Notes under the pieces: generated by a model
What the model saw: only the letters and a program-made list of their open reading frames with translations
What the model was told of the DNA's origin: nothing
Databases searched by the model: none
Made by a program: the position numbers and the translations under genes
Assembly (NCBI RefSeq): GCF_013393385.1
Contig: NZ_AP023239.1
Coordinates: 1,922,001 to 1,986,000, forward strand
Direction: 5' to 3'
DNA: 64,000 nucleotides
Origin: Paenibacillus sp. URB8-2
GTDB lineage: Bacteria > Bacillota > Bacilli > Paenibacillales > Paenibacillaceae
In this document: in pieces, positions 7,462-27,850 of the stretch
Numbering within the stretch: position 1 is the first letter of the stretch
Layout of the letters: each line of letters starts with the position of its first letter

Positions 7462-7494
7462 GAAAGGCGGGGTGTGACCCCGCCTTTCTTTTTT
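7462..7494 (+). terminator. Rho-independent terminator after the glycine-zipper gene
   Basis: A perfect stem GAAAGGCGGGGT / ACCCCGCCTTTC with a three-base loop is followed by a run of T. It ends the 6823-7458 transcript. Confidence 0.92.
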
Positions 7495-7563
7495 GTTATA
7501 CCGTTTGAAGGTAGGAGACGTTGTCAAGACTGGTTAGCACTGAAGCAGAGAAGAGGTGCCTGC

Positions 7564-8366: not shown

Positions 8367-11300
8367 ATGAGCAAAATGTATGTTGATTCATCAAAGGAAA
8401 GCGGAATAACCAAGCAAAGGATTTTTCATACGGTTTCCAGTGTAACGGGCCACAGGGTTGAAGATATCGAAGCGGAAATGTTTCTGGAAGACGATCTGGG
8501 ACTGGATTCCATTAAGATGATTTCACTGATGAATGAAATGATTAAGCTGATCCCGGAGGACCAACTGGATGATTTTCATACCGCCTATCCGGTGGGTTCA
8601 TTGCTGGCAATATCCACTGTCCGCGAATTGTTAGGAATTTTTGAGGAGTGGGAAGCCACCCAAAGAAATGCTTTGGAATCTCCTGAAATTGCGGTTACTG
8701 CCGATGCATCTGCCACAGCCGGAGAAGTTGACGAACAGTTGAAAGTGGATGTCTGCCAATTGATATCCGAAATCACCGGCCATAACCCCCGGGATTTGTA
8801 TGTGGACATGGATCTGGAAAGTGATTTGGGTCTGGATTCCATCAAAATGATTTCGCTCATGAACAGTTTGCTCAAACTCATTCCTGCGGACCAGGCAGAC
8901 GACTTTACCTGCAAATATTCCTTTGCTTCACTGCTCACCTTGCAGACGATAGGGGATATTGTAGAGTTGTTTGCCGATTGGCGGATGAGTGTTGGCACTG
9001 CCCCCCAACCGCTCATAAACACAGATACTCCTGTTTTGACGCAAATTTCTGAAAATCACCCCGAATTTCTTGAAATCTTACATACCCAGTATTTATTTTT
9101 GGTCACGTATTTGTCCGTAGCCAACCTCTCGATCAGTACGGGAGTGAAGGTCAGGGGCGAACTGAACTTGGAAAGTCTGAGGGAGTCCTGGAGAGAGCTT
9201 ATTTACCGCCATCCCATCCTCCGCAGCGTGTTTACCATTGATCAGGGAACAAGCAGTCTGAAGGGTTACCGCCTGAAACTGCTCAAGGATATCACCCCGC
9301 CGGAAATTTCCGTTGAGGATATCCGGCATCTGGACCAAAAGGCTCAGCAGCAAGCCATCTCCCGGAAATTTGAAGACTCGCTGAATCGTAAATTTAATAT
9401 TACACAGTGGCCGCTGCACTCCTTCTCCGTAATACGTACCGCCGCTGATGAGTACGAGCTTATACTGGACATCAATCATCTCATTTCGGACGGTCTGGGC
9501 AACCAGCAGATCGTGAAGGAATTGCTGGAGATTTATGGCGCGAGATCACAAAAGAGAACTGCCCGGTTAGGACCTGCCCTGCTTGCCAAAGAGTATAACG
9601 ATATCGTGATAAAGCTTAATCAGTGGGAAGCACCGGAGGAAGTTCAAGCCCTGGACGATTATGTACGGCAGCAGGGCAGGGGAACCTATTTTTTCAACCC
9701 CTATAAATCCGCCGGCAAACTTACACCTGAACGTACTAAAGAGGCCGTAATCCATACCCGGAAATATTGGATCGATGAGCAGACAACGTCTCTCCTGATC
9801 AAGCGCACCAAAGCATGGCGCACCTCCTTGTTCGTTCTTCTGGTCAGTGCGTATTTAAAGACGATCAAGCAGCAGGGGGAAGAGCAGAACCGAATCATAC
9901 TCAATCTGCCGACAAGCGGAAAGCTGTACCCCAATCAAGATGCAACGGACGTACTCGGAGCGTTTGCGCAGAATCTGGCCCTCACCTTTGCTTGCGAGGA
10001 TGCAGACGAAGGTTGGGGATCGCTGATCGGCAGAACGAAAGAAGTCATCAACAGTAAGTTATCCTCAGGAATGGACCGGGCGCAGACCTCCAGAGCCGCA
10101 CACTACGCCAAAGACTCGATCCGCCTGCAAAATGGCAGCATGCCCGATGCGGCAGCTTCCATGATCCGCTCAACTTTGAAATCTAACCTTTACCTCTCCT
10201 TCGTAGGAAATACATCCATTGATAAGAAATACGGGCATTATGAAGTTCATGATTATGAAGCTTATACGGGAACCAATCCCGGAACGATTGACAATCTGGT
10301 TGAAATCTTCCAAGGCAGACTCATGATTACATCGAACTATGACAGCACCTTTTTTGACGACGGGTACATCGACAAGCATATGAGCAGATTTATCGAAAAT
10401 ATTAACCGGCTCGCTGCTTTTGAAGTGAAGACCGCCGAACCTCTCTCCGTGGCGCAGGAAGCGAACGCTGCCCGGGAAGCTGGAGAAACGGAAGAGAAAT
10501 TGCGGGCAATCGTTGAAGAAATCAGCACAAGGAAACTTGGGGCCGAGGATATGTCCCGGGATTTGGAAGCCGAACTGGGTCTGGATTCCCTGCAGCGTAT
10601 CCGGCTTATCGCGAGGCTGGGCGGCGCATTTAGGAATATCGATAAGGCGGCTTTGTTCGAATGCAGGACGCTGAATGAGATGATTTCCAAAATAACAGGC
10701 AGAGGCACTCGGCCGTCTGCGGACGGCAAAACGGCGGAAACGGGCATTCCTTATAAGAAAATCTCCGAACAATGCAAACTCACGCCGGATGCCGTCGCTG
10801 TCCTGGACGGAGCAAGAAGCGTCACTTATCGTGAGCTGGATGAATTATCCAACCGATTGGCGCACTATCTTCGCTCACAGGGGGTGAAATCCCAGACGCT
10901 GGTCGGGATCATGACGCTTCCCGGTCATCTTATGCTGATCGGAATTTTAGGAATCCTCAAGGCGGGGGCCGCCTATATTCCTCTTGATCCGGTGTATCCG
11001 CCTGAACGGATTAAGTATATTACCCGGCATGCTCAGCTTCAATTCCTGTTGACGGAACAGCTGCTGAAAGAGCAGGCGAACCTCATCGTTCAGGAGAGCC
11101 CGTCTATCAAGACATTAATTGTTCTGGATGAAGATGTTGAAAAGAACAAACCGCAAGTCCATCTAGATTCGGCGCAATGGCGGAATTACTCCGATCGCGA
11201 TCTTGAAGTCGACAGTTCGCCCCATGATGTTATGGTGGTTCTATATACGTCGGGATCAACCGGAAATCCGAAAGGAGTCATACTCAATCACCGAGGCTAT

Positions 11301-14300
11301 ATGAACCGGCTGGAATGGCATCAAGAGACTTTCCTGCTGCAGCCCGGTGAACGGGTGGCGCAAAAGACTTCCTGCTGCTTCGATATCTCGGTTTGGGAGC
11401 TGCTGTGGCCGTTGATGTATGGAGGGACCGTATGCCCGGCCAAGCAGGAGGTAGTCAAGAATCCATGGAGCCTGGCCCGGTGGATGGTCGACACCCGCAT
11501 CAATGTCATGCACTTTGTACCTTCATTGTTCGGTGAATTTGTAAATTCGCTTGAGGACGAGGGATATGCGTTTCCTGAGCTGCGCTGGCTCATTTTCAGC
11601 GGAGAAGGTCTTCCGCTCTCTCCTGTTCAAAAGTGGATGGACCGGTACGGGAAGTCGACCGGGATCGCCAATCTCTATGGCCCCACCGAGGCTTCCATCG
11701 ATGTCACTTGCCACATCGTTTCGGACAGACCGGGGGCGAACGGTGAGTTTAGCATTCCTATTGGAAAGCCTATCAACGGCGTGTTTATTAAAAATCTGGA
11801 TGAGCAAATGCGTGAAGTGCCCGAGGGTGAGATTGGCGAGCTATGGATTGGCGGCATCCAACTGGCGAAAGGTTATTTGCATGATCCGGAGAAGACCCGT
11901 GCAGCTTTCCATCCTAATCCGTTCCCGGAAATTCCGGGGAAATTCATTTACCGTACAGGGGATTTAACAGTGAAACGGGCGGACGGCAGCTACGAATATC
12001 ATGGGCGCATCGATAATCAGGTGAAGCTTCGCGGCTTCCGGGTAGAATTGGGTGAGATTGAGGCGGTCTTGGATGCCCATGGCAATATCGACGAGGCAGC
12101 CGTCATTGTAATCGAACCCGCTCCCGGACAGCAAACGCTGCTGGCCTGCCTATCCGGCCGGATGACCGATGAAAAAGAAATCAAGGATTTCATTGGCCGG
12201 AAGCTTCCCTACTACATGATTCCACATCGTTTGGAGTGGCTGCCGCGGCTGCCGAAGAATCCGAACGGCAAGCTGGACCGTAAAGCGCTGCGAGACCGGT
12301 TCGGCGGATCAGGATATCCGGCAGAATCATTGGAGCAACCGCATATCACAGAGGTCAAAGAGGTCAAAGTGGAGGACACACTTCCACTCGCGCCGGCTCA
12401 AAGCTGGCTGATGAATTATTTTGAATCCCCGTATTGCTGGGCGGGCTATACCCGATTTGTATACAATCAGCCGCTGGATTTGCAGCGGTTCAAGAAAGCC
12501 GCCGCTTTATTGAACGGGCGTCATGATGTGCTGAGAAGCGTCTTGGTGCAGAAAGACTCCGGATGGGAGCAGCGTTTCCTTTCTGAAGAAATGGACAGCA
12601 ATGTGGATTTCTACGACGGAACCCATCTGGAGGAAGCTCAAAGAAACGAAGCGATTCAAGCAACCCTGACAGAAGCGATAAAGGGATTACAGGTTGATCA
12701 GTGGCCTTTATGGAGAATTGTCGTGGTTCAGATTTCGGAGTCGTCGTACGATATTGCGGCGGTTGGCCATCATTTGATTTCGGATGTGATTACCAATCAG
12801 CTGTTGGTCCGGGAAATTTGGCAGATTTATACCGGGCTCGGGTCGGAAGAGCAAAAAGTACAGCTTTCGAAGCCCAAATTGTATGCCGATTTCATACGGG
12901 CTGTGCAGGAAGAAAGAAGAATCCATGCCAAAACCTATGTGGATTACTGGTCTTCACAGTTTCCGCCGGAGTCCGTATGCAAGCTTCCCACCGATTTTAT
13001 CAAAGGGCCAAACGATGAGCAGTCCGCAAGGATCATACGCTTTGAATTTGACAAAGAAAACACTTCATCGATATTAGGTAAGGCCAAAAAGCACTTTGGC
13101 AGCAATGTATATCCGATTTTGCTGGCTCCACTTTACCGGATGATGAGCAACCTCTTTCAGCGCTCCAAAATCATTGTCAGTCACCGGGTGCATGGGAGAG
13201 AGCTGGGCGGCGAGCAGAGCTTTATGCAGACGCCGGGCAATTTTGCCGTCAATTTTCCAATGGGCATTCTTGTGGAGGAGAACAGCGGTTGGCAGGATCT
13301 TGTCCGCAGCATTCGTCAGAGTTTAGAGGATGTTCCACTTGGCGGGGTGAGCTATGATCTCGTCTCCGAGAATTTGCCGATCTACATGTACCCGGATGTC
13401 AAATTGACTCCGATCAGGGCCAATTATCTAGGGAACCGGGATATGCCGAAGCTGCCGGGCTTTGAATTCTCGAAGGAAGGGCTGGATCGCAGGTTTGCGC
13501 TGCCGCTGCAAAAAAGAATATCGGTCATTGAATTCTTTTTCTCCATCGAGGAGGGCAAGCTGGTGGTCGAGATCGAGTATTCGTCCAATCTTCATGCTGC
13601 CGAAACGATCAATCGTCTGGCGGAGCATTACACCGAAAATATGCAAAAGCTGCTCTCGTCGATTGAATTGCCGGCACCGCATTTTAGCCTGAGAGAAGGA
13701 CAGCTTTCCAATAAAGTGGCTATTGTTACCGGCGGCAGTAAAGGAATCGGACGGAGCATCGCTGAGTCGTTGGCCCGGGAGGGAGCCGATATTGTTCTAA
13801 TATCCAGATCGGCCCGGCAGCTTCAAGAGACGGCCGAAGAGATACGCAAATTAGGCGCGGAGGTCCTGGCGATATCGGCGGATGTCAGTGATGTTTCAAG
13901 TGTTTATAAGGCCGTAGATCAAACAATGGAACGCTTCGGACATATTGATATTCTTGTCAACAGCGCAGGAATCACAGGAATGGCCGCGACGGCGGATATG
14001 AGCCCCGAGGTGTGGAACACGATTATTCAAGTGAATTTGTTGGGGACGTATCACTTTTGCTATGCGGTAATACCGCATCTGATGAAACAGAAGCAAGGCA
14101 AGATCATCAATATCGGCTCCGACTCCTCCTTTATCGGCTACCCGATGATGAGCGCCTATGCGGCATCCAAGCATGGAGTTCTGGGACTGACCCGGTCTTT
14201 GTCAGAAGAACTGAAAAATAGCAATATTCAGGTAAACGCACTATGCCCGGCGCTCGTGGATACCGATATGGCGCCCGCAGCGTTTAGGGGAAGAGCCATC

Positions 14301-14459
14301 CCTCCATCGGGAGTTGCGGAATCGGCGGTATTCCTGGCTTCGTCCCGTTCGGATTATATTACCGGCGAAGCTCTGCAAATCTATGGCAAGCAGGATATGA
14401 ACTGGTTCGGAGCACAGCAGATGCAAATGCTGCAGGCTGTCATGCGCAAGCGACCATAA
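8367..14459 (+). CDS. Hybrid NRPS protein: ACP-ACP-C-PCP-A-C-SDR
   Basis: The 2030 residues hold, in order: two near-identical carrier domains (phosphopantetheine serines S48 and S158, both in GLDSIKMISLM); a condensation domain (about 225-690, NHLISDG at 370-376, second His kept); a third carrier (S741); an adenylation domain (about 785-1310, TSGSTGNPKG near 961, NGKLDRK near its end); a second condensation domain (HHLISD at 1468-1473); and a classical short-chain reductase (about 1780-2030, TGGSKGIG, Y1931 and K1935). The carrier precedes the adenylation domain, the reverse of normal. The specificity pocket reads roughly D-I-W-S-I-S-L-I-D by eye, closest to serine codes. No thioesterase is present. 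GGGGGGAT precedes the ATG. It is the first gene of the operon with the MFS and PKS genes. Confidence 0.9.
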   Translation: MSKMYVDSSKESGITKQRIFHTVSSVTGHRVEDIEAEMFLEDDLGLDSIKMISLMNEMIKLIPEDQLDDFHTAYPVGSLLAISTVRELLGIFEEWEATQRNALESPEIAVTADASATAGEVDEQLKVDVCQLISEITGHNPRDLYVDMDLESDLGLDSIKMISLMNSLLKLIPADQADDFTCKYSFASLLTLQTIGDIVELFADWRMSVGTAPQPLINTDTPVLTQISENHPEFLEILHTQYLFLVTYLSVANLSISTGVKVRGELNLESLRESWRELIYRHPILRSVFTIDQGTSSLKGYRLKLLKDITPPEISVEDIRHLDQKAQQQAISRKFEDSLNRKFNITQWPLHSFSVIRTAADEYELILDINHLISDGLGNQQIVKELLEIYGARSQKRTARLGPALLAKEYNDIVIKLNQWEAPEEVQALDDYVRQQGRGTYFFNPYKSAGKLTPERTKEAVIHTRKYWIDEQTTSLLIKRTKAWRTSLFVLLVSAYLKTIKQQGEEQNRIILNLPTSGKLYPNQDATDVLGAFAQNLALTFACEDADEGWGSLIGRTKEVINSKLSSGMDRAQTSRAAHYAKDSIRLQNGSMPDAAASMIRSTLKSNLYLSFVGNTSIDKKYGHYEVHDYEAYTGTNPGTIDNLVEIFQGRLMITSNYDSTFFDDGYIDKHMSRFIENINRLAAFEVKTAEPLSVAQEANAAREAGETEEKLRAIVEEISTRKLGAEDMSRDLEAELGLDSLQRIRLIARLGGAFRNIDKAALFECRTLNEMISKITGRGTRPSADGKTAETGIPYKKISEQCKLTPDAVAVLDGARSVTYRELDELSNRLAHYLRSQGVKSQTLVGIMTLPGHLMLIGILGILKAGAAYIPLDPVYPPERIKYITRHAQLQFLLTEQLLKEQANLIVQESPSIKTLIVLDEDVEKNKPQVHLDSAQWRNYSDRDLEVDSSPHDVMVVLYTSGSTGNPKGVILNHRGYMNRLEWHQETFLLQPGERVAQKTSCCFDISVWELLWPLMYGGTVCPAKQEVVKNPWSLARWMVDTRINVMHFVPSLFGEFVNSLEDEGYAFPELRWLIFSGEGLPLSPVQKWMDRYGKSTGIANLYGPTEASIDVTCHIVSDRPGANGEFSIPIGKPINGVFIKNLDEQMREVPEGEIGELWIGGIQLAKGYLHDPEKTRAAFHPNPFPEIPGKFIYRTGDLTVKRADGSYEYHGRIDNQVKLRGFRVELGEIEAVLDAHGNIDEAAVIVIEPAPGQQTLLACLSGRMTDEKEIKDFIGRKLPYYMIPHRLEWLPRLPKNPNGKLDRKALRDRFGGSGYPAESLEQPHITEVKEVKVEDTLPLAPAQSWLMNYFESPYCWAGYTRFVYNQPLDLQRFKKAAALLNGRHDVLRSVLVQKDSGWEQRFLSEEMDSNVDFYDGTHLEEAQRNEAIQATLTEAIKGLQVDQWPLWRIVVVQISESSYDIAAVGHHLISDVITNQLLVREIWQIYTGLGSEEQKVQLSKPKLYADFIRAVQEERRIHAKTYVDYWSSQFPPESVCKLPTDFIKGPNDEQSARIIRFEFDKENTSSILGKAKKHFGSNVYPILLAPLYRMMSNLFQRSKIIVSHRVHGRELGGEQSFMQTPGNFAVNFPMGILVEENSGWQDLVRSIRQSLEDVPLGGVSYDLVSENLPIYMYPDVKLTPIRANYLGNRDMPKLPGFEFSKEGLDRRFALPLQKRISVIEFFFSIEEGKLVVEIEYSSNLHAAETINRLAEHYTENMQKLLSSIELPAPHFSLREGQLSNKVAIVTGGSKGIGRSIAESLAREGADIVLISRSARQLQETAEEIRKLGAEVLAISADVSDVSSVYKAVDQTMERFGHIDILVNSAGITGMAATADMSPEVWNTIIQVNLLGTYHFCYAVIPHLMKQKQGKIINIGSDSSFIGYPMMSAYAASKHGVLGLTRSLSEELKNSNIQVNALCPALVDTDMAPAAFRGRAIPPSGVAESAVFLASSRSDYITGEALQIYGKQDMNWFGAQQMQMLQAVMRKRP

Positions 14460-14482
14460 TCGTAAAAGGGGCCTAAGCGAAA

Positions 14483-15661
14483 ATGGAGCAACGATCGGGC
14501 AAACTTCATGAACTCTTTGGCGGGGGCAAAGGGATCATTTTCAGCATTGCCCTGCTGGTGGGGACTTCCATGGGTGTCATCAACCCGCTTTCTACCACCC
14601 ATATGACAACCAACCATGGTGATGAAATTTGGATCGGCATTATTTCTTCCTCTTATTTTTTCTTTATGGCGCTTGGTTCCGTTTTTGTGGACCGAACGAT
14701 GAGAGGAAGCAATGTGAAAAGGGTCATAACGACAGGTCTGCTGCTAACCGCAGTTTGCGCATCGATTTTCCCTTTTTTCACCATCAACGGAATTTGGCTG
14801 GGCCTTATGTCTGTGATGGGGATTGGCATTAGCTGCAATATGGTGGGGATGCAGACGGCGCTGCACAATCTTTCTAGTGTGAAGAGTCTGGGGATGATCA
14901 ACGGCATTTACAGCTTGTGCTTTGCCTTGGGGCTGATTGTCAGCGCGGCTCTGGCGCCGCAGGTGTACGGCTATGCAGCATGGCTGCCGTTTGCTTTCAG
15001 CGGTCTGTGCCTGATGCTCGCAGCAGGAATAATTCATTTTAAGCTGACGGATGTATTGGTCATTCCCGGGCGCGCGAGGGACAAGGTCATTTCCAAAATT
15101 ACGCCGGCGCTCTTCGGCGCCTTCGTGTACGGGTTCAGCGAAACGATTGTCGTTTCTTTATATCCCCTCTATTTAATAAGGGAGCATGTCGCGGTCTCCC
15201 GGACAGGATATGCCTTAAGTATTTTTGTGATCGGCAGCATTATCGGCCTGCTTCCATTAACCTATCTGGCCGACCGGATGGGGCGGAGGAAGTGCCTGGC
15301 TTTATGTGTTCTTTTTTCCACTTTGGCTGTGATCGGCATCGTGTCCGTTTCGGATTTAACTCTTAAAATGCTGTTTTCCTTCGCCGCCGGGTTTATGATC
15401 GGACCGCTGTATCCTCTCTCTATGGCTCTTGCGGTTCAAGATTTATCGGAAAGCGAGCGTTCCTCGGGAAATGCGTGGTTCACTACCTTTTACGGCTTTG
15501 GTTCGGCGGCGGGGCCGTTCTTCTCCTCTGTCGTTATGGACGTGTGGGGGCACCGGCATATTTTTACGGCAAGTCTGCTGCTGTTTGGCTTGTTTCTGAC
15601 CCATATGTTTGTGACAAGAAAAGGTTCAAAAGTACGATTAGCCAAGGAGGAAATGTTGTGA
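14483..15661 (+). CDS. MFS transporter, probable product exporter
   Basis: This is a 392-residue membrane protein with about 12 hydrophobic segments and MFS loop motifs (DRTMRG after helix 2; ADRMGRRK in the second half). It lies 23 bases after the NRPS gene, and its stop codon overlaps the GTG start of the PKS gene by four bases, so it is co-translated with the assembly line. The position suggests export of, or self-resistance to, the product. The substrate is inferred from context only. Confidence 0.85.
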   Translation: MEQRSGKLHELFGGGKGIIFSIALLVGTSMGVINPLSTTHMTTNHGDEIWIGIISSSYFFFMALGSVFVDRTMRGSNVKRVITTGLLLTAVCASIFPFFTINGIWLGLMSVMGIGISCNMVGMQTALHNLSSVKSLGMINGIYSLCFALGLIVSAALAPQVYGYAAWLPFAFSGLCLMLAAGIIHFKLTDVLVIPGRARDKVISKITPALFGAFVYGFSETIVVSLYPLYLIREHVAVSRTGYALSIFVIGSIIGLLPLTYLADRMGRRKCLALCVLFSTLAVIGIVSVSDLTLKMLFSFAAGFMIGPLYPLSMALAVQDLSESERSSGNAWFTTFYGFGSAAGPFFSSVVMDVWGHRHIFTASLLLFGLFLTHMFVTRKGSKVRLAKEEML

Positions 15662-18600: not shown

Positions 18601-21600
18601 TCCCTTGAACAAGCGCAAAGAGACGGAGATTCCGTCCTGGCGGTTCTGAGGGCGAGTGAAATCAACAATGACGGCCATTCCATCGGTGTAATGGCCCCAA
18701 ACCCTGACGGGCAGAGGGAGTTGATCGAGTCCCTCTATGTGCGCAGCGGGCTGAATCCGGCGGATATTCAGTATGTGGAGGCCCATGGAACGGGTACGAA
18801 GATCGGCGACCCAAGCGAAGTCAGAGCGCTGGATAAAGCGTTCAAGAGCTGGGGGCTTGCAAGGCAGTCGATTGCCATTGGTTCGGTAAAATCCAATATC
18901 GGACACCTTTTGGGCGCGGCGGGAATCGCCAGCTTTATCAAAATCGTCATGGCCTTGCGGAACAAAACGATGCCGCCGCAGATGAATGTCGTTAAGCCGA
19001 ATCCAATGCTGAAATTTGAGCAGACTCCCTTCTATCTGCTCTCGGAAGCCAGCGAATGGAAAGTAGCGGATGGAGCGGCCAGACGTGCGGCCATTAACTC
19101 TTTCGGCTTTGGCGGGACCAACAGCCATATGGTTGTAGAAGAGGCGCCGCAGGGCCACACGATAAGCGGGGAAGCGTATCCGGAGCGGCCGAAGCATGTC
19201 ATCGGGCTGTCGGCTCATACGTCTTCCGCGCTGGAGCAGAAGAAAGCGGATCTTGCGGCCTTTCTCGAACAATCCGGGGAGTATTCACTCGCCGAGATTT
19301 GCTATACGGAAAATGTTGCGCGTACGGCGCTGCCGCACCGTTTCCATGCTGTAGCGGATTCGGCCCAGGACCTTATCGGCAAATTGAAACTCAGTTCACC
19401 GGAATCCACCCCAGCCTTTATTTCGCCGAAGATTGCGTTGATGTTTACCGGACAAGGTTCGCAATACGCGGGGATGGGCAGAGCTTTATACGACCAACTT
19501 CCCGCTTTCCGTAAAATTGTGGACGATTGCTCCGAAGCCTTTTATCCGTATCTGCAGTTGAAGCTGACCGATTTACTCTACGGTGCGGAGGCCGATAACC
19601 AAGTTCTTGCACAGACAAACATCACCCAACCGGCCGTCTTCACGATGGACTATGCCTTTGGCAGGCTGCTGCTGGATTCCGGCATCCGGCCCGCTTACCT
19701 TCTCGGTCACAGCATCGGCGAATGGGCTGCCGCTTGTCTCGCGGGCGTCGTTAACCTTGCGGATGCGGCAAGATTGGTAGCCGTAAGAGGCAAATTAATG
19801 AGCGAGCTGCCGGCGGCGGGAGCCATGGCCGCCGTATTTACTTCAAGCAGCAAGCTTGATGCCTTGATGCAATCCTTTGAAGGTTCCTTGTGGGTCGCCG
19901 GATACAACGTCACGCATCAGGTTGTGTCCGGAACGGCGGAGGCGGTGGAAGCATTTGTGACCGCGCTGCAGACGCAAGGAATCGGAGCTAAGAGACTCAA
20001 CGTTTCCCAAGCCTTTCACACGCCGCTGATGCAGCCGATGCTGGAAGCGTTCAAGAAAGAACTGGAAGCCACGGTGTTCCACGCTCCGCAGATTCCGGTC
20101 ATTTCCAATGTGACTGCTGAAGTCATTCAGGAGCCGCCCACGGCGCAGTATTGGATGCAGCATATTCTGGATGCCGTGAAGTTTGAGCAAAGCATAACTT
20201 ACGCGATTGACCAGGAGGTTACGGTTCTGGTCGAATGCGGCCCGGACGCTATTCTTGCCGGGATGGCCGGAGGCTTGCAGTACGCAAGCAAACCGCAGGC
20301 CCTCCATACCCTTAGCCGTAAGAAGGATAATTGGGAGACCTGGCTCGGCATGCTTGGTCAATTATTTTCTCTTGGAGTGAACATCAATTGGACCGCGGTA
20401 GAGCCCGATCATGCCTATCGCAAAGCGGCTCTGCCGGTCTATCCCTTTGAGCGTAAAACGTTCAAGCCAGACTTTGGAACTGGGTCGGATTCGGCTTATG
20501 CCGTGAATGGCAGCGGTTTGTTCCATGAATGGCAGTGGAAGCCTGAGGCTCTTGTTGACAACACCCTTATAAATGAGGGGGCTGTGCTCGTATGGAACGG
20601 CAACCTTGAGATTGGCGGGGAACTGGAGCGCTCATTGGACGCTGAACGAAATCCGGTCTTCTATGTAGCCTCCGGCGATAAGTTCCACTACGATGGTAAG
20701 CGCAGCTTTACTATACGGCCGGACCATGCGGAGGATTATACGGATTTACTGGAACAGATGCCAGGCAAGCTATCGGCTGTTATTCATTTATCCCATTATC
20801 TGCAGGAAGAGCTTCAGACTGAAAATCTGCTGAATGACATCAGCATGAATGAAAACTTCTACAGTCTGCTTCACTTTGGACAAGCCATGGTCCGCCATGG
20901 GCTGAGCCAGGGGCATCTTGTAATTGTTACGGATAAAGCTTATAAACTGCCGGAAGATGCAGGCGGGGGCAACCCGAATCAGGCGGCAGCCGCCACACTG
21001 AGCCAGGTCATCGATTCTGAAAATGACGGAATCCAGGTTACAGTGATCGATATGAACAAGGAAGAATATCCATCAGACCGGGATTTTGCCAAAGCATTGA
21101 AGATTGCAATGAAGCAGAAGGCCGATGAGGAGTCGATCACGGTCATACGTGGCGGAGTGCGTTATGTCCGCACCTTGGAGAAAATGCCCGTGCCGGCAGT
21201 CGGAAAAAGCGTTGAACTTCACGATGGGGAAACGTACCTGATCACCGGAGGAACTGGGCTCGTGGGAGGCCAAATTGCTCTGGCGCTTGCGCGGCAAGCA
21301 CGGATAAATGTGGTTCTTACGGGCAGAAAACAGCTTCCGCCCGATCATCTTCTCCTGCCGAAACTGGAAGAGCTGGGCGCTCAGGTTATGTATGCGGCCG
21401 CAGATGTTACGGATCAGGCCCAAATGGAGGATCTGCTGCGCAAGATTCACGCCGCCTACGGCCCCCTGCATGGAGTAATTCATGCCGCAGGGCAACTGGA
21501 GTACACGCCTCATAAGCTTTTAAACCGAAGTGTAAGCGATATTGACAACGTCCTGGCTCCCAAATGGAAGGGGACCATTATTACGGATCTCGTAACCCGT

Positions 21601-24600
21601 TCGGAGCCGCTGCGATTCTTCGCGTCCCTGTCTTCCGTTTCGGCCACCCGCAAAGCATGGGCCTCGGGTCTTGGAGACTATGCAGCCGCCAACGCATTCT
21701 TAAATGGCTACAGCTCCTACCGGACAAAGGGGCAGGCGCCGGGGCGTTCCTTGTCGATCAACTTCTCGCTCTGGTCAGATACGGGGGCGGGAACGGAGTT
21801 TGGAGATCTTCTTCAGCTGACGCTTAGAGCACAAGGGATGAAGCCGCTTGTTCATTCCGCCGCCGCCGATGCTTTCCTGAGAGCCTTGGGAACCGACCGG
21901 CCTGATGTCATTCATATACTGGACCTGGTAAAGAGCGATGAGAAGAAGGAGCGCTCCACCGCGCTAAAAGCAGAGCAGCAGCCCGCCGCTGTCGATTCTG
22001 GCGCCCGTTCGCCGGTTTATCGTACTGCGAAAGAAGTGCGGGATATTGTGTACCGGACGATTGCCGAGCAGCTTCAAGTTCCTGTCCGCCATCTGGAGGC
22101 GGGCAAGAACTTCATGGAACTTGGGCTCGATTCGCTTGGGGCGGTCCAGGTTGTTTCCAAGCTCGGCGGCATATTTAATACCGAACTGTACCCGACGCTT
22201 ATTTTTGAATATCAGACACCGGAAGAATTGTCCGCACATATCGAAGAGCTGCTAACAGCGGACCCAGTGAAAATGACTGCTCACGAAGAGAATAAGAAAC
22301 CTGAAGAAAGCAGGAAGGATGAAAAACTGCAGGATATCGCCATTATTGGGATCGGTCTGCGCATACCTGGAGCAAACAATCAGGAGGAGTATTGGGAGCT
22401 GCTGCATAACGGCAGAAGCGCCATCCGCCCCGTTGCTCCCGGAAGATGGTCTAATCATGAGCATGTGAACACCGATGCAAATGTGCTTCATACGACCTAC
22501 ATGAGCCGGGGGGGCTTTATCGATGCTCCTTACGACTTTGATCCGTTGTTCTTTGGAATGTCGCCGAAAGAAGCGGAGGCTACCGATCCCCAGCAGAGGA
22601 TCTTTCTGCAGATTGCCTGGGAGGCCTTGCAGCAAGCGGGGTATGGAGGGAAATACCGCACCCGCAAAATCGGCGTGTTCGCAGGCTGCGAGCAGAACAC
22701 CTACATGGAGCATTTCGCCAATTACCGTTCCTATATGCTGATTAAAAACCGTCTGGCGGACAGCCCCGCCTTCAACCGGATGAACCCTGAAGAACGGCAA
22801 GAAATTCTCGCCGGTATTTCCGGGGTGCTGGAGCCGGCCCGCCTCGTTCCGGATACGGTCGCCGGAAATGGCCTGAATGAGGTGGCGGCGCGGGTAAGCC
22901 ACTGCTTGAATTTGACGGGGCCGAGTCTGATCGTAAATTCCGCCTGCTCCTCTTCCCTGGTAGCCATTCACATGGCCTGCGAAAGTCTGCGCACCGGGGA
23001 GTCGGAAATGGCCATTGCGGGCGGCGTGAACCTGAATTTAAGCCCGACGCCGTTCGTCTCCCTCAGCCGGGTGACCGCGCTGTCGCCGACCGGGGTCTGC
23101 TATCCGTTTGACGAAAGAGCAAACGGAATGGTCCTGGGTGAAGGGGCGGGAGCCATACTGCTGAAGCCGCTTGAAGCCGCGCTGAGAGACGGCGATTGCA
23201 TCCACGCGGTGATCAAAGGCTCGGCCATTAACAACGACGGCCGCTCCCAGGGAATTACGGCGCCAAGGCCGCAAGGCCAAGCCGAAGTTATCAGAGAAGC
23301 GTTCCGGCGGTCGGGAATTCATCCCGAAACCATTTCTTATGTCGAAACGCACGGCACAGCCACGCCGCTTGGCGACCCCATTGAAGTTGAGGGGATGACC
23401 CAGGCGTTCAGCACCTTTACGAACAAGACGCAGTTTTGCGGAATTGGTTCGGTCAAATCGTCCGTTGGGCACATGCTTTCAGCCGCCGGGGTAACCAGTC
23501 TGATTAAGGTGGCCCTTGCGCTCAAACATCAAACCCTGCCGCATACGCTGAATTATGACCAGCCGAATCCGAATATTGATTTTGAGCATTCCCCGTTCTA
23601 TGTGGTCGATAAATATCCAAGACCCTGGAAGGCGGAAGGAAGCGCTCCGCTCAGGGCAAGCGTCAATGCCTTCGGATTCGGAGGAACCAACGCCCATGTT
23701 ATTTTGGAACAAGCGCCGCAAATTTCGGATACGCCTTCCCCGGCGGACAACGGGCCGCATCTGCTGCTGCTTACGGGCAGAAATGAACAAGGCATCAGAG
23801 CAGTTGCCGGAAACCTCAGAGCGCATCTGGAGAAGCAAGCGGAGGTTAGCGTAGCTTCAGTATGCTGCACAATGAATCTTTCACAGAAAGAAATGTCCGT
23901 CAAAGCTGCGGCCGTCATTAAATCCAAAGAGCATTTGACCAGCATTCTTTCTGCGGTTGAAAATGGCGAGTCTTTTGCGGAAATTAGCAGAGGGCGTTCT
24001 AATCCAAGCCGAACTGCAGCGGTCCATCTCATGCTGGACGGTAAAATAACCGTGAGCGGCAGCGAACTGGATGTGCTCTGCTCGCGGTTCCCAGGCTTTG
24101 ACTCTGCCTACCGGCAGGCGAAACAAGAAATAAAGGATGGCGGGGAGAAGCTTGAGTCTTTTGCTCTTCACTATGCGGCTTCAAAACTGCTGCTCGATTT
24201 AGGGATTCGTCCCGCCGGAATCTTTGCCGAGGGAACAGGCATACTCGCGGCACTCGTTCTCACAGGCCAAGTTTCGCTGCGGCAAGCCGCATTATTCATT
24301 CAGGACGAAAGCGGGGAGCCCGTTTATACAACAACCGATGCCCAAGAATTTTTAAAATGCCCGGTGGTAACTCCTTCAGGCGTAATCTACCGCAGCCACA
24401 ACCGCGAGCTCTGGCCTTTCGTCAAGAACGCTACCCGGGATAAATTAGAGGAACAAGATTTTACGGAAGCCTTGGGTGCGGGCGAAGCGCTGCTTTATTA
24501 CGGAAGCGATCTTCGCTCTGTTAATCTGCCGGTCAGTCACCAAGAAACATTCCAGACCATAAGCCTCTCCCTGGATTTGGACGCCGTGGAGAACCTTTTG

Positions 24601-24780
24601 CAGGGTATGGGCAAGCTGTATGTTCTTGGAGTTCCATTTGATCCGTCAGGACTTTTTAATCCCCATGAGAAAAAGGTTCTCTTGCCGACCTATCCGTTCG
24701 CTAATGAGACCTATAAGGTTTCATATGAACAAGAGGAAGAACCGGCCATTAAGACAGGGCTTCGAAAAATAGAGGTATAA
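15658..24780 (+). CDS. Hybrid PKS protein: FAAL-ACP-KS-AT-KR-ACP-KS-degenerate AT
   Basis: The start is GTG 15658 (AAGGAGGAA about eight bases upstream, overlapping the MFS stop), giving 3040 residues. Domains: fatty acyl-AMP ligase 1-600 (SSGSTNIPKG near 190); ACP with S643; KS1 707-1165 (C908, HGTG, NIGHLLGAAG); AT1 1260-1550 (GHSIG with S1352, AFH motif as in malonyl-type ATs); KR 1855-2050 (TGGTGLVGG, S1993, Y2008); ACP with S2159; KS2 2226-2680 (C2430, HGTA, SVGHMLSAAG); then 2700-3020, which aligns with an AT but reads AEGTG (2857-2861) where GHSxG belongs, so the catalytic Ser is Gly. There is no DH, ER, final ACP or thioesterase. It would load a fatty acid, extend it once and leave a beta-hydroxyacyl chain for KS2. 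Confidence 0.92.
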   Translation: MSRFKRKSKENLSILKGKSITGKFAELGNLANALVQVTGNPDRGITFIQNDNSEFFLSYQALLDGATRRLGGLQEQGFKPGQYALILLEDSKEFILTFWACILGGVIPVPASYPASSKVINTSLSKLLAIWEVLERPRILSDRSLLEARAEMETTLGIGGLEILEAHSLDQAQQDGVLMLADAHSPALIQFSSGSTNIPKGTILTHDNLLTNLEAIISSMGMTDEDRSLGWMPYHHDMGLIGFHLSTLVCGIKQFNMTPMKFVKRPTLWLDMIDKHRITFSGCPNFGLRLVYSRVKEEQLGSWDLSSLRLLFNGAEPISVKTMRKFMDKFAKSGFNKNAMFPVYGMAEACLAVSFPILGEEPQVHSLNRELLAGESRAEAIDENDKRATLMADEGYPVNGMEIRIVEEETSAVVPEGTVGEIQIRGRNVTSGYINNPEVTAKSFQDGWLKTGDTGFILNGRLTVSGRIKDIIFVNGQNFFAHDIEAVIEELDEVEPGKIAVCGWHDEEEGKEKVGLFSTLRLQEKDVEPVYSRILRHINETIGIPVDYVSFIRSIPKTTSGKVQRFQLVGSFKKGEFKDKTYPGSYFAAEAKPLEPERTPGGEAASASGAFAEKIRNIWASVLHKPVETIPYDEPFLSLGGTSLKAMQILGALEDELSMELTHDLLIKCRTVREMDEYLAAWVNSNGRPSEERKEPSVSNGVKSGGGDIAVIAMACRFPGASSPEEFWNNLAQGVQSIGEVPGSHWNIDDYYSPTPEFGKTYCRTGGFLDNPYGFDAGLFGISEEEAAVMDPQQRMVLELTYELIERAGYSRQQMSGKKVGLFVGAGGNSYFEYHLNTLNRMKLQSFDSFAVLSSEQQERILEEWRWKLGYTGDHSNLLVDNIVNMIPARTSQEFNFKGPSMAVDTACSSSLVTLHLAADSIRRGECESAIAGGVSLLLTPTSYQYFSNAGALSPSGRSSVFDADADGFVPGEGGGLVMLKSLEQAQRDGDSVLAVLRASEINNDGHSIGVMAPNPDGQRELIESLYVRSGLNPADIQYVEAHGTGTKIGDPSEVRALDKAFKSWGLARQSIAIGSVKSNIGHLLGAAGIASFIKIVMALRNKTMPPQMNVVKPNPMLKFEQTPFYLLSEASEWKVADGAARRAAINSFGFGGTNSHMVVEEAPQGHTISGEAYPERPKHVIGLSAHTSSALEQKKADLAAFLEQSGEYSLAEICYTENVARTALPHRFHAVADSAQDLIGKLKLSSPESTPAFISPKIALMFTGQGSQYAGMGRALYDQLPAFRKIVDDCSEAFYPYLQLKLTDLLYGAEADNQVLAQTNITQPAVFTMDYAFGRLLLDSGIRPAYLLGHSIGEWAAACLAGVVNLADAARLVAVRGKLMSELPAAGAMAAVFTSSSKLDALMQSFEGSLWVAGYNVTHQVVSGTAEAVEAFVTALQTQGIGAKRLNVSQAFHTPLMQPMLEAFKKELEATVFHAPQIPVISNVTAEVIQEPPTAQYWMQHILDAVKFEQSITYAIDQEVTVLVECGPDAILAGMAGGLQYASKPQALHTLSRKKDNWETWLGMLGQLFSLGVNINWTAVEPDHAYRKAALPVYPFERKTFKPDFGTGSDSAYAVNGSGLFHEWQWKPEALVDNTLINEGAVLVWNGNLEIGGELERSLDAERNPVFYVASGDKFHYDGKRSFTIRPDHAEDYTDLLEQMPGKLSAVIHLSHYLQEELQTENLLNDISMNENFYSLLHFGQAMVRHGLSQGHLVIVTDKAYKLPEDAGGGNPNQAAAATLSQVIDSENDGIQVTVIDMNKEEYPSDRDFAKALKIAMKQKADEESITVIRGGVRYVRTLEKMPVPAVGKSVELHDGETYLITGGTGLVGGQIALALARQARINVVLTGRKQLPPDHLLLPKLEELGAQVMYAAADVTDQAQMEDLLRKIHAAYGPLHGVIHAAGQLEYTPHKLLNRSVSDIDNVLAPKWKGTIITDLVTRSEPLRFFASLSSVSATRKAWASGLGDYAAANAFLNGYSSYRTKGQAPGRSLSINFSLWSDTGAGTEFGDLLQLTLRAQGMKPLVHSAAADAFLRALGTDRPDVIHILDLVKSDEKKERSTALKAEQQPAAVDSGARSPVYRTAKEVRDIVYRTIAEQLQVPVRHLEAGKNFMELGLDSLGAVQVVSKLGGIFNTELYPTLIFEYQTPEELSAHIEELLTADPVKMTAHEENKKPEESRKDEKLQDIAIIGIGLRIPGANNQEEYWELLHNGRSAIRPVAPGRWSNHEHVNTDANVLHTTYMSRGGFIDAPYDFDPLFFGMSPKEAEATDPQQRIFLQIAWEALQQAGYGGKYRTRKIGVFAGCEQNTYMEHFANYRSYMLIKNRLADSPAFNRMNPEERQEILAGISGVLEPARLVPDTVAGNGLNEVAARVSHCLNLTGPSLIVNSACSSSLVAIHMACESLRTGESEMAIAGGVNLNLSPTPFVSLSRVTALSPTGVCYPFDERANGMVLGEGAGAILLKPLEAALRDGDCIHAVIKGSAINNDGRSQGITAPRPQGQAEVIREAFRRSGIHPETISYVETHGTATPLGDPIEVEGMTQAFSTFTNKTQFCGIGSVKSSVGHMLSAAGVTSLIKVALALKHQTLPHTLNYDQPNPNIDFEHSPFYVVDKYPRPWKAEGSAPLRASVNAFGFGGTNAHVILEQAPQISDTPSPADNGPHLLLLTGRNEQGIRAVAGNLRAHLEKQAEVSVASVCCTMNLSQKEMSVKAAAVIKSKEHLTSILSAVENGESFAEISRGRSNPSRTAAVHLMLDGKITVSGSELDVLCSRFPGFDSAYRQAKQEIKDGGEKLESFALHYAASKLLLDLGIRPAGIFAEGTGILAALVLTGQVSLRQAALFIQDESGEPVYTTTDAQEFLKCPVVTPSGVIYRSHNRELWPFVKNATRDKLEEQDFTEALGAGEALLYYGSDLRSVNLPVSHQETFQTISLSLDLDAVENLLQGMGKLYVLGVPFDPSGLFNPHEKKVLLPTYPFANETYKVSYEQEEEPAIKTGLRKIEV

Positions 24781-25983
24781 ATGGAGAGAGGCATGAGCAA
24801 GGGCTACAAAATTACGAAGATCACTATCCTATCTGTCGTTGTTCTGCTCGCCGTGCTGGCCGTGACCTTGTTCACAGCCAGCGGTGCGCAGAAGAAGGCC
24901 AAGTATCTCGATCCTTGGAAACGGGATTATTTCGAACAGTTTGAGGACCCGCGATTGCAGGTCATAGCTCATGGATTATTGGCCGCGAACAGCCACAACC
25001 TTCAGCCATGGAAGATCCGCCTGGATCAACAGAACCCGCTGCTATTGTACCTTTACACCGACAACGAACGGCTCGCGCTGGAATCGGACTCTTTAGCCCG
25101 GCAAACGTTGGTTTCACAAGGCACCTTTTTGGAATATATGCGAGTAGCCGGCGAGCAGTTGGGGTATCCAGCCGAGATCGTCCTGTTTCCGGATGGGGAG
25201 TACGATGAACAACATTTAAGCGAGAGTATGGAACGGAAGCCGGTGGCGAAGATTACGCTGTCCAAGGCGAGCCCGCAAAATAATCCGCTCTATGAATTCA
25301 TGTTCTTGCCGGATACGAACAGAATGGCCTATCAGCCGGATGAAATAACGTCCGCTCAAATCCGAAAGCTGAACAAAACCAACACGGATCAAGACTTGAT
25401 CTTATCTATCCTGAACGATAAAGCGGATATCGAAAAGTTCGGAGCCTACGGTGTGGAGGGCACGGAGATCGAAACCGGTCTGCGGCGGATGAACGACGAG
25501 TCGGCCCGGATTTTCCGTTCCAATGAATATCAGAAAAATAAATACCGTTATGGATTTTCATTTGAAGGGCAGGGAACGACGGGATGGAAAAAGCATCTGC
25601 TGCAAGGGTTAATCACGATCATTCCATTTCTTAACAATGAGGAAGCATCGACCAAGCTCGCAGTCGAAGCGGCCCAAACCGCAGCCGGCCATACTCCTTC
25701 GTATGCCTTGATCCTTAGCAAGGATAACAGCCGGACCAGCCAGGTTAAGGCGGGAATGTTGTACAGCAGGCTCATACTTACCGCGCATGAGGAAGGACTC
25801 GTGATGCAGCCGCTCAGCCAAGTATTGCAGGAATATCCTGAAATGCATGAGGCTTACGGCAAAATTCACCGGGAATATGCAGCGGCGGGTGAAACGATCC
25901 AGTTCCTGATCCGTTTAGGCAGACCGACACAAGATACACCGCTCAGCATGAGGCGGGAGGCAGTGGATTTGATTTCGGAATAA
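24781..25983 (+). CDS. Membrane-anchored Acg-like nitroreductase-fold protein
   Basis: The 400 residues start with one membrane segment (about 17-35), then a domain resembling the Acg family of FMN-binding nitroreductase-like proteins: AANSHNLQPWKI near 60, and SRTSQVKAGMLYSRLILTA with MQPLSQ in the last third. In Mycobacterium, Acg is thought to bind flavin without classical nitroreductase activity. The gene begins directly after the PKS stop, so it belongs to the operon. The ATG at 24793 has an equally good ribosome site (GGAG six bases upstream). It could tailor the product by a redox step at the membrane, or have a sequestering role. Neither can be decided from sequence. Confidence 0.75.
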   Translation: MERGMSKGYKITKITILSVVVLLAVLAVTLFTASGAQKKAKYLDPWKRDYFEQFEDPRLQVIAHGLLAANSHNLQPWKIRLDQQNPLLLYLYTDNERLALESDSLARQTLVSQGTFLEYMRVAGEQLGYPAEIVLFPDGEYDEQHLSESMERKPVAKITLSKASPQNNPLYEFMFLPDTNRMAYQPDEITSAQIRKLNKTNTDQDLILSILNDKADIEKFGAYGVEGTEIETGLRRMNDESARIFRSNEYQKNKYRYGFSFEGQGTTGWKKHLLQGLITIIPFLNNEEASTKLAVEAAQTAAGHTPSYALILSKDNSRTSQVKAGMLYSRLILTAHEEGLVMQPLSQVLQEYPEMHEAYGKIHREYAAAGETIQFLIRLGRPTQDTPLSMRREAVDLISE

Positions 25984-26014
25984 GAAAGCATGCGGTTTAG
26001 ATCGATAAACGCGG

Positions 26015-26060
26015 CAGTGAGCAGGGGGATCGACACTCCTCTGTTCACTGTTCATTTTTT
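26015..26060 (+). terminator. Terminator-like hairpin before the Sfp-type gene
   Basis: CAGTGAGCAG pairs with CTGTTCACTG (one G-T pair) across a 16-base loop, followed by TTCATTTTTT. It ends the nitroreductase transcript or attenuates the phosphopantetheinyl transferase gene 30 bases further on. Confidence 0.65.
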
Positions 26061-26089
26061 ATGTTCATTGAAGGAGTGGATTGTAATCA

Positions 26090-26815
26090 ATGGTTGAGGT
26101 TTATGCGCTGCCGGTACCGCATGAGGATTGTTATCAAAAATATTTAGGATTATGCGATTATGTGTCATTCGAGAAAAGTGCACGCATCAAGCGCATGGCA
26201 AGCAAAAAAGATGCATTGCGGATTCTTTGGGCCGATTTGCTCATCCGCGTTCTGATTATGGACAAATACAAGCTGAAAAACAGAGAGATTTCGTTTATTT
26301 ACAATCCCAACGGCAAGCCTATTTTTGAAATGGATCCAAGTTTTGCATTCAATGTATCTCACTCCGGAAACTGGATTGTTGCTGCCGTTGCGGAAAAAGG
26401 ACAATGGATCGGGGTTGATATTGAAGAAATCCGGCCGATTGAACTCGACATTGCCGAACGTTTTTTCGCGCCAGCGGAGTACTGCCATTTGATTACGGAG
26501 AACAAGTCCCGTCAACTGGACTATTTCTATGATTTATGGACACTTAAAGAAAGCTATCTCAAAGCTACCGGCGCCGGACTGACGCTGCCTCTTGGTTCAT
26601 TTGCGATCCATAAGGACAGGGAATCCGATACCATTTCCATTTCCCAGACACACTCCGCGCATGCGTTCTTTTTTCGGCAATACGAGGTTGATCCTTCGTA
26701 CAAGCTGTCCGTGTGCTCCACGGAGGAATACTTTGCAGATGCTGTTAAAAGGGTTGAGTGTTCTGAGGTTTATGAACGGATAGCCGGAATGCCTGTGCAA
26801 AGCACTATTTTGTAA
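26090..26815 (+). CDS. Sfp-type 4'-phosphopantetheinyl transferase
   Basis: The 241-residue protein carries the family motifs: FNVSHSGNW near 84-92, GVDIEEI near 107-113 (Mg-binding Asp and Glu) and WTLKESYLKATGAGL near 150-164. It transfers the phosphopantetheine arm from CoA to the serine of carrier domains, here most likely S48, S158 and S741 of the NRPS protein and S643 and S2159 of the PKS protein. It is the last gene of the locus on this strand, and a dpaA gene converges on it 29 bases later. Confidence 0.93.
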   Translation: MVEVYALPVPHEDCYQKYLGLCDYVSFEKSARIKRMASKKDALRILWADLLIRVLIMDKYKLKNREISFIYNPNGKPIFEMDPSFAFNVSHSGNWIVAAVAEKGQWIGVDIEEIRPIELDIAERFFAPAEYCHLITENKSRQLDYFYDLWTLKESYLKATGAGLTLPLGSFAIHKDRESDTISISQTHSAHAFFFRQYEVDPSYKLSVCSTEEYFADAVKRVECSEVYERIAGMPVQSTIL

Positions 26816-27786: not shown

Positions 27787-27850
27787 CAGAATTTTGTTTT
27801 CCTTTACCTTTCCGTTGTTATCCCCATTTGCCGAACTAGTTAAACGATTA

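What the first reader, a model, noticed from the sequence alone, without database searches (positions are those of the whole stretch)
8367..26815. Compact FAAL-PKS-NRPS locus in which the two assembly proteins look built to complete each other
Seen: the PKS protein ends KS2-decayed AT with no ACP. The NRPS protein begins with two ACPs and ends with a free SDR reductase. Known: a KS needs an acceptor ACP loaded with malonyl. Inference: KS2 passes its chain to the tandem ACPs (S48, S158) of the other protein, the SDR does the ketoreduction in trans, and AT1 or a housekeeping FabD supplies malonyl. The product would be a fatty-acyl, twice-extended polyketide joined to one amino acid. I do not recognise a known pathway with this domain order.
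Basis: partly seen in the sequence, partly recalled or inferred. Interest (0 to 1): 0.85.

Follow-up and report, generated by a model that had tools for sequence, protein, structure and literature searches.

The report
Conserved split lipid–serine assembly line
Two giant enzymes of a Paenibacillus-type bacterium appear to form one chain-building line that extends a fatty acid and joins it to serine, and the same odd split design recurs in distant bacteria, with no product found for it here.

Summary
The PKS protein (15658-24780) is FAAL-T-KS1-AT1-KR-T-KS2-AT° with no closing carrier. The NRPS protein (8367-14459) is T1-T2-C1-T3-A-C2-SDR, with A after T3 and no thioesterase. The one-contig chromosome has no other PKS and only one other PP-binding hit (100 aa, beside FabD- and FabF-like hits), so the two proteins should complete each other. 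All 15 genus relatives found carry the arrangement (2 cut by contig ends). It recurs in Clostridia, Bacilli, cyanobacteria and Gammaproteobacteria. In 32 of 32 KS2-AT orthologues KS2 keeps its catalytic residues and AT° has lost GHSxG. Related proteins carry KS-T-C1-T3 on one chain. The A domain reads serine (123 of 125 aligned members). "C2" is E-related, with HHxxxD intact and the epimerase Glu replaced by Arg in 124 of 125.

Most likely product: a fatty acid, twice malonyl-extended (5-hydroxy-3-keto, or 3,5-dihydroxy after the SDR), amide-linked to serine. Release by C2 and the SDR's substrate are inferred. No product was found in the open-licence papers searched. Verdict: real; a new variant of a known kind.

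The parts
8367..14459 (+). NRPS-like protein T1-T2-C1-T3-A(Ser)-C2-SDR, 2030 aa
   Evidence: Pfam/NCBIfam; 125 family members aligned (window's included)
8409..8651 (+). T1, acyl carrier, phosphopantetheine Ser at residue 48 (GLDSI); limits approximate
8739..8981 (+). T2, acyl carrier, Ser at residue 158 (GLDSI); limits approximate
9024..10436 (+). C1, condensation domain; His371 and Asp375 (NHLISDG), each present in 123 of 125 (2 gaps)
10497..10685 (+). T3, peptidyl carrier, Ser741 (GLDSL), Ser in 125 of 125
10767..12302 (+). A domain, serine-type code DIWHISLIDK; lies downstream of its carrier
12339..13676 (+). C2, epimerization-related domain, HHLISD intact, EGHGRE Glu replaced by Arg1607; proposed terminal/release domain
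13680..14456 (+). FabG-like SDR fused at the C-terminus (TGGSKGIGR, YAASK)
14483..15661 (+). MFS exporter
   Evidence: PF07690 1.1e-42
15658..24780 (+). PKS FAAL-T-KS1-AT1-KR-T-KS2-AT°, probable GTG start overlapping the MFS stop
22327..24006 (+). KS2, catalytic Cys/His/His intact
23956..24777 (+).
24781..25983 (+). Acg-type FMN nitroreductase-family protein with an N-terminal hydrophobic stretch
   Evidence: NF047509 4.5e-59; PF00881 5.3e-05
26013..26052 (+). terminator-like stem (16 pairs) after the nitroreductase gene
26090..26815 (+). 4'-phosphopantetheinyl transferase
   Evidence: PF01648 1.4e-18; NCBIfam

Best explanation
The locus is a complete two-protein assembly line for a lipid-polyketide-serine conjugate, built round a split module. 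FAAL loads a fatty acid on the first carrier. KS1-AT1-KR adds one malonyl unit and reduces it to a beta-hydroxyl. KS2 takes that chain and passes it to T1/T2 at the start of the NRPS protein, charged with malonyl in trans (AT1 or FabD). AT° does no chemistry; with the conserved tail it probably scaffolds or docks KS2 to the carriers. C1 condenses the 3-keto-5-hydroxy chain with serine, which A loads on T3. The E-like C2 acts on the serine thioester of T3 and most probably frees the chain (by transfer, or by cyclisation such as Dieckmann closure to a serine tetramate). The SDR reduces a ketone, most simply the C3 ketone. MFS exports the product; the PPTase activates the carriers. Shown by sequence: domain order, active-site motifs, serine code, conservation, relatives with the parts on one chain. 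Inferred: every reaction step, in particular who loads malonyl, what C2 and the SDR act on, docking, and the product.
For: Own chromosome: KS hits are the two here plus two single KSs; PP-binding hits are four here (T1 missed) plus one 100-aa ORF; AT hits are AT1 plus one of 314 aa. Of 394 family genomes searched, 15 besides the window's own have a strong match to the NRPS N-terminal region. Of 42 named loci, 17 show NRPS-MFS-FAAL/PKS as far as the stretch reaches, 11 a PKS ending KS2-AT° directly before a T-first NRPS, 8 KS-AT-T-C1-T3 followed by a separate A-C2, 6 are incomplete or otherwise arranged. Parts on one chain: P0170 carries KS-T-C1-T3-A-C2 with the AT deleted; 13 KS-AT-T-C1-T3 proteins checked all have GHSVG. 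KS2 Cys/His/His kept and AT GHSxG lost in 32 of 32. AT° dN/dS 0.17-0.30 in 5 comparisons. Mantel r KS2-C1 0.974 (31 loci), 0.947 (18 outside Paenibacillus). Serine-type code in 123 of 125. SDR nearest to 3-ketoacyl-ACP reductases and 3-hydroxyacyl dehydrogenases.
Against: No product, expression or enzyme data. Relatives with an active AT (KS-AT-T-C1-T3) show that the order KS-T-C1-T3 occurs, not that docking occurs here. The high Mantel correlation could reflect common descent of the whole cluster rather than contact. 54 of 125 members have only one leading carrier, so tandem is not essential; SDR is absent in 17 of 125. AT° is the least conserved part (44-49% against 82-84% for KS2 in the farther Paenibacillus) with the higher dN/dS, which weakens, though does not exclude, a docking role. 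The housekeeping ACP was not excluded as acceptor.
Confidence: 0.75

Rival explanations
1. C2 releases by Dieckmann-type cyclisation: the E-like domain holds T3 in its donor site, the beta-ketoacyl-serine thioester closes on itself and leaves as a serine-derived 3-acyltetramic acid; the SDR acts afterwards or on another ketone.
For: No TE or thioester-reductase family among the Pfam hits of either protein. C2 is E-related (E-type matches 135-190 bits per domain, C domains 85 or less and only in part), a fold that works on a single carrier (recalled). C2 is kept in members with and without the SDR, and the SDR-less cyanobacterial lines show no KR match in the last module, so a beta-keto substrate fits all.
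Against: No characterised E-like domain is known to me to do this (recalled). If the SDR reduces the C3 ketone first, Dieckmann closure is impossible.
Confidence: 0.25
2. C2 transfers the acyl-serine from T3 to a soluble amine or alcohol (VibH-like release) or to a lipid headgroup, giving a membrane or exported lipid.
For: HHxxxD in 125 of 125. MMPL exporters sit next to the PKS in Luteimonas and Shouchella. TE-free release by spermidine is reported for paenilamicin (PMC4397504, passage seen).
Against: C2 groups with E domains rather than with transferring C domains, and E-type domains have no acceptor-carrier role (recalled). I saw no conserved nucleophile-making gene in the stretches looked at, but most neighbouring ORFs were not scanned for families.
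Confidence: 0.3
3. C2 is a true epimerase with altered residues, giving D-serine; release is by hydrolysis or a separate thioesterase.
For: Nearest solved relatives are E-type domains. ORFs that look by eye like type II thioesterases (no family scan run on them) lie near the cluster in Clostridium puniceum and C. lacusfryxellense (L079, L080).
Against: The EGHGRE Glu is Arg in 124 of 125, 1 gap; order is T-A-C2, not A-T-E; none of the five genes of the window cluster is a thioesterase.
Confidence: 0.2
4. The locus is a decaying cluster: AT2 is already dead and the rest is on its way out.
For: AT2 lacks its active site; reading frames are interrupted in two relatives (L029, L035).
Against: The same dead AT with an intact KS2 in 32 of 32 orthologues across phyla; dN/dS at most 0.41 in every domain and comparison that could be computed; KS, C, A, T and SDR motifs intact.
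Confidence: 0.03

Closest known systems
Mycosubtilin/iturin-type lipopeptide synthetases (Firmicutes, FAAL/acyl ligase-PKS-NRPS hybrids)
   Same: An acyl-AMP ligase and carrier start the line, a KS module extends the fatty acid, an NRPS adds amino acids (FAAL review PMC11837247 lists them; details recalled).
   Different: Here one amino acid only, split KS | T-C module, dead AT, C-T-A order, E-like terminal domain and SDR, no TE, no aminotransferase.
Split modules of trans-AT PKSs (e.g. macrolactin KS/KR, gladiolin KS/DH junctions)
   Same: A KS at the C-terminus of one protein works with domains held by the next; described in PMC9113145 (passages read).
   Different: Here a cis-AT-type protein keeps a conserved dead AT after the KS and the junction is KS-AT° | T(T)-C; the passage seen calls cis-AT subunit junctions predominantly intermodular.
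NRPS epimerization (E) domains (TycA, GrsA, PvdL, bacitracin synthetase)
   Same: Best sequence relatives of C2, near full-length match, HHxxxD.
   Different: Glu of EGHGRE replaced by Arg, near-invariant motifs SHRxHGR, GNFAxNFP, RxNYLGN, lies after A not after T, near the end of the line.
Columbamide/serinolamide-type cyanobacterial fatty acyl-serine pathways (recalled; columbamides are in the FAAL review table)
   Same: FAAL-started chain joined to serine (recalled).
   Different: Those end with reductive release to serinol (recalled); here no thioester-reductase family hit and a different domain order. Not compared by sequence.

Membership tests
FAAL-initiated type I PKS-NRPS hybrid | acyl-AMP ligase domain of FAAL type next to a carrier | tested here: met
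   PDB best matches McyG, two entries named amino acid adenylation domain-containing protein, then FAALs and FadD23/28/32, ahead of coumarate- and acyl-CoA ligases; PP-binding follows. FAAL-specific insertion not tested.
FAAL-initiated type I PKS-NRPS hybrid | KS and NRPS A/C/T domains with intact motifs on partner proteins | tested here: met
Split-module PKS (KS and its carrier on different proteins) | terminal KS without ACP; partner begins with ACP; no other carrier but the housekeeping one | tested here: met
Split-module PKS (KS and its carrier on different proteins) | demonstrated acyl transfer or docking between the two | not testable with these tools
   needs an in vitro assay
NRPS epimerization domain | HHxxxD motif | tested here: met
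   125 of 125
NRPS epimerization domain | catalytic Glu of EGHGRE (role recalled) | tested here: not met
   Arg in 124 of 125, 1 gap; EGHGRE itself is seen in the PvdL and bacitracin synthetase alignments
NRPS epimerization domain | order A-T-E | tested here: not met
   T3-A-C2 in the window and in the homologues with these domains
NRPS terminal reductase (R) domain | thioester-reductase family (extended SDR) match | tested here: not met
   12 Pfam families at E up to 0.01 on the NRPS protein, none a thioester reductase; best is adh_short 3.1e-63. NCBIfam: best 25 of 244 seen, all classical SDR models.
Iturin/mycosubtilin family | aminotransferase domain, heptapeptide NRPS, TE (recalled) | tested here: not met
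   one amino acid A domain, no aminotransferase or TE among Pfam hits
MIBiG entry with the same architecture | listed cluster and product | not testable with these tools
   MIBiG not available; the FAAL review's table of examples has no such Firmicute product; paper searches

The most novel reading that the evidence does not exclude
The T-C1-T3-A(Ser)-C2 block is an unrecognised, portable chain-ending cassette spread over several bacterial groups (Bacilli, Clostridia, cyanobacteria, Gammaproteobacteria) and coupled to different starters: fatty acyl in Firmicutes, an aromatic lyase plus A-T in Nostoc, apparently PUFA-synthase/glycolipid-like modules in other cyanobacteria. Its E-derived domain has been turned into a new kind of release catalyst for serine thioesters, for instance a Dieckmann cyclase making serine tetramates.
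Probability: 0.3. Interest if true: 0.8.

Novelty: new variant of a known kind. Interest (0 to 1): 0.6.

Why it matters
A family of assembly lines without a product that I could find, from Paenibacillus and Clostridium to Nostoc and Methylocaldum, shares one unusual logic: a KS with a dead AT hands over to carriers on another protein, and serine is added by a C-T-A-(E-like) block without a thioesterase. Such a locus can look incomplete: a 2015 survey table lists 'Incomplete NRPS predicted' for P. durus DSM 1735, a species in which the family occurs; that this entry is this locus was not shown. Knowing that the two proteins form one line gives a testable product class and a defined junction for engineering. 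The E-like domain may be a new chain-release chemistry.

Tried and rejected
Rejected: (1) a PKS elsewhere in the genome, or a further carrier besides the housekeeping-type one; (2) a decaying cluster; (3) C2 as an ordinary epimerase and the SDR as a thioester reductase; (4) tandem carriers as a requirement (54 of 125 have one by motif count). I did not search the own genome for A or C domains, so a further NRPS there is excluded only through the PP-binding search.

Led nowhere: ten paper searches (the cap) gave no matching pathway in the listings; only open-licence papers are held, so Clostridium and cyanobacterial work may be missing. The structure job for C2 failed, so no fold comparison was made.

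Rows left out: L112 (Crocosphaera; a different module with intact GHSVG and AFHS) was fetched and aligned but not counted in the 32; L023 and L026 (contig ends) gave no KS2. In one search, 125 of the 173 proteins then held were aligned, the window's included: members of 1450-2200 residues with C2; KS-AT types, fragments and P0170-P0173 left out. Two of the 125 have codes unlike serine (DIWLQILIAK, DILLFILIHK). One search scored only the 8000 candidates sharing most words and listed 120 of 448; one search listed 120 of 155. In one search, 26 of 27 loci given had a held genome (L064 not). In one search the T2 value for L034 and the PPTase value for three relatives could not be computed.

Full report
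What is there. The window lies at 1922001-1986000 of a one-contig genome of 5.58 Mb. The nearest named relative of its NRPS protein is from Paenibacillus rhizophilus (89% over the first 700 residues). The genes 8367-25983 run in one direction: NRPS, MFS exporter, PKS, nitroreductase-family protein. The PKS probably starts at GTG 15658 on the stop of the MFS gene, with AAGGAG upstream. A terminator-like stem of 16 pairs follows at 26013-26052 (38 such sites found against 21.5 expected in the region), then a phosphopantetheinyl transferase gene.

Domain anatomy. NRPS protein: T1 (S48), T2 (S158), C1, T3 (S741), A, C2, SDR. PKS protein: FAAL, T, KS1, AT1, KR, T, KS2 and an AT without active site. 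AT1 has GHSIG and AFH, a malonyl-type pattern (recalled). The FAAL domain's best solved matches are McyG, an adenylation-domain protein and FAALs, ahead of CoA ligases. It misses T3, the inverted C-T-A order and the second condensation-superfamily domain, and the SDR is fused, not free.

Is anything missing elsewhere? Whole-genome searches give four KS hits (two here; two single KSs of about 415 aa), five PP-binding hits (four here, T1 being too weak; one of 100 aa beside a KS and an AT hit), and two AT hits (AT1; one of 314 aa). The carrier for KS2 should therefore be T1/T2, unless the housekeeping ACP is used. I did not search for A or C domains.

Conservation in the genus. A search of 394 genomes of the family with the NRPS N-terminal region gave 15 strong relatives besides the window's own, all in its genus. 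Of these 15, 13 have enough contig and all 13 show NRPS-MFS-PKS-nitroreductase with the same domain order; 2 are cut by contig ends. In two of the 13 (L029, L035) reading frames are interrupted. The PPTase gene was seen next to the cluster in 2 relatives (L021, L022); several stretches end before it. AT2 is the least conserved part (44-49% in the farther relatives, KS2 82-84%).

Conservation beyond. Protein searches found members in Clostridium, Bacillus cytotoxicus, Halalkalibacter, cyanobacteria, Methylocaldum and Pendulispora, among others. Among 125 aligned members (the window's included), T3 Ser is present in 125, C1 His in 123 (2 gaps) and C2 HHxxxD in 125. By motif count two leading carriers occur in 66, one in 54, three in 1 and none recognised in 4; 17 lack the SDR, some perhaps as fragments. 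A scan of named genomes gave 42 loci. In one search, 17 have NRPS-MFS-FAAL/PKS as far as the stretch reaches (several are cut and L041 and L074 have interrupted frames), 11 have a PKS ending in KS2-AT° directly before a T-first NRPS, 8 have KS-AT-T-C1-T3 followed by a separate A-C2, and 6 are incomplete or otherwise arranged (L051, L053, L055, L067, L071, L073).

KS2 and AT°. I fetched KS2-AT stretches from 19 further genomes. With the window and 13 Paenibacillus this gives 32 orthologues after leaving out L112: besides Paenibacillus, 10 other Firmicutes, 6 cyanobacteria and 2 Gammaproteobacteria. KS2 keeps Cys and both His in 32 of 32; GHSxG is absent from the AT in 32 of 32. AT° evolves under constraint (dN/dS 0.17-0.30 in five comparisons) but more loosely than KS2 (0.03-0.13). 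A protein search with AT° plus tail gave 31 hits; the 14 best (E at most 6e-25) look by source and length like the same family, the rest are weak PKS matches. In all 14 Paenibacillus sequences printed, the window's included, the tail ends in GL(K/R/I)K(I/V/L)EV; the six cyanobacterial tails carry one or more LSPEQR-like repeats. These tails are candidates for docking; this is inference.

Parts on one chain. Thirteen KS-AT-T-C1-T3 proteins checked (six bear cyanobacterial names, the rest none) have an AT with GHSVG, a GLDSI carrier and one or two GxDSL carriers at the end; C1 between them was recognised by BLAST, not by my motif pattern. P0170 carries KS (TACSGS), no AT, T (LALDSIKM), C1 (EHIISDG), T3, A, C2 within 3540 residues. 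They show the order KS, T, C1, T3 in cis, which the window has split over two proteins. KS2 and C1 distances correlate (Mantel r 0.974 over 31 loci, 0 of 1000 permutations as high; 0.947 over the 18 outside Paenibacillus). Common descent of the whole cluster could also give this: C1-A and C1-C2, on one protein, correlate as well (0.955, 0.980).

Serine. The ten code residues read DIWHISLIDK. In the 125 members the code is DIWHISLIDK in 85, DIWHVSLIDK in 28 and a near variant in 10, three of which are exactly DVWHLSLIDK; 2 are unlike. That DVWHLSLIDK is the canonical serine code is recalled.

C2 and SDR. With a profile of 28 family members, E-type domains of solved structures match at 135-190 bits per domain (PvdL 135, GrsA 150, bacitracin synthetase 152, TycA 164-167, a TycB construct 190; which constructs are E domains is recalled except where EGHGRE is seen in the alignment), almost over the full profile; C domains reach at most 85 and only in part. 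The Glu of EGHGRE, held to be catalytic in E domains (recalled), is Arg in 124 of 125. C2 should therefore not be filed as an epimerase. Near-invariant motifs (SHRxHGR, GNFAxNFP, RxNYLGN) and an invariant HHxxxD speak for a catalytic role. As no TE or thioester-reductase family was found, release by C2 is the most economical reading. The SDR is a FabG-type reductase by family, with an Arg after beta2 in the commoner forms, as in many NADPH enzymes (recalled). Reduction of the C3 ketone fits, but C2 is conserved with and without the SDR, so C2 should not depend on it.

Surroundings and literature. In Nostoc (L089) the starter is an aromatic amino acid lyase with an A-T protein. MMPL exporters stand next to the PKS in Luteimonas and Shouchella, and nitroreductase-family proteins next to the cluster in Luteimonas and Methylocaldum. 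The FAAL review PMC11837247 (outline, passages and section 3.1 read) lists no comparable Firmicute product in its table of examples and does not contain the word Paenibacillus. PMC4397504 (passages) lists 'Incomplete NRPS predicted' for P. durus DSM 1735; the family occurs in P. durus, but that the entry is this locus was not shown. In the passages seen of PMC5100339 and PMC8949500 nothing alike is named. PMC9113145 (passages) describes split modules as a trans-AT habit and cis-AT junctions as predominantly intermodular. The remark that no product was found rests on ten searches of an open-licence library, whose hits I mostly saw as listings, and is limited accordingly.

Verdict. The observation and the core inference stand.

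Noticed in passing
L089:3243-7047; L090 2208-6067 (on the reverse complement of the fetched stretch): In Nostoc the same kind of line is preceded by an aromatic amino acid lyase (PF00221, scanned in L089 only; L090 by likeness) and an A-T protein in place of FAAL, pointing to a cinnamoyl- or coumaroyl-type starter.
   Followed up: partly
L054, L092, L093: In Microcystis wesenbergii and Nostoc mirabile the KS-AT-T-C1-T3 | A-C2 line stands beside proteins with only weak KS/KR matches that look by eye like PUFA-synthase or heterocyst-glycolipid modules.
   Followed up: no
L087:8077-10479; L084:9349-11637 (-): MMPL-family exporters (PF03176) stand next to the PKS gene in Luteimonas and Shouchella, suggesting an exported lipid.
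   Followed up: partly
L082, L083: In Clostridium acidisoli and C. hydrogenum a second FAAL-like protein (36-37% identity) and a PPTase-like protein follow the PKS.
   Followed up: no
window 7474-7926 and 26845-27957: The cluster is flanked by a YtfJ-type sporulation gene (PF09579) and a dipicolinate synthase A-like gene (PF16924, minus strand); both flanks are shared with L021.
   Followed up: partly
window 1919-6655 (-): P-type cation ATPase of 1578 aa with an N-terminal HMA_2 match.
   Followed up: no
L103, L105, L106, L107 (PKS C-termini): These cyanobacterial PKS tails carry two or more copies of an LSPEQR..Y..L..EL-like repeat, perhaps tandem docking peptides.
   Followed up: no
L029, L035: PKS and/or NRPS reading frames are interrupted in two Paenibacillus relatives; sequencing error and real mutation were not told apart.
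   Followed up: no
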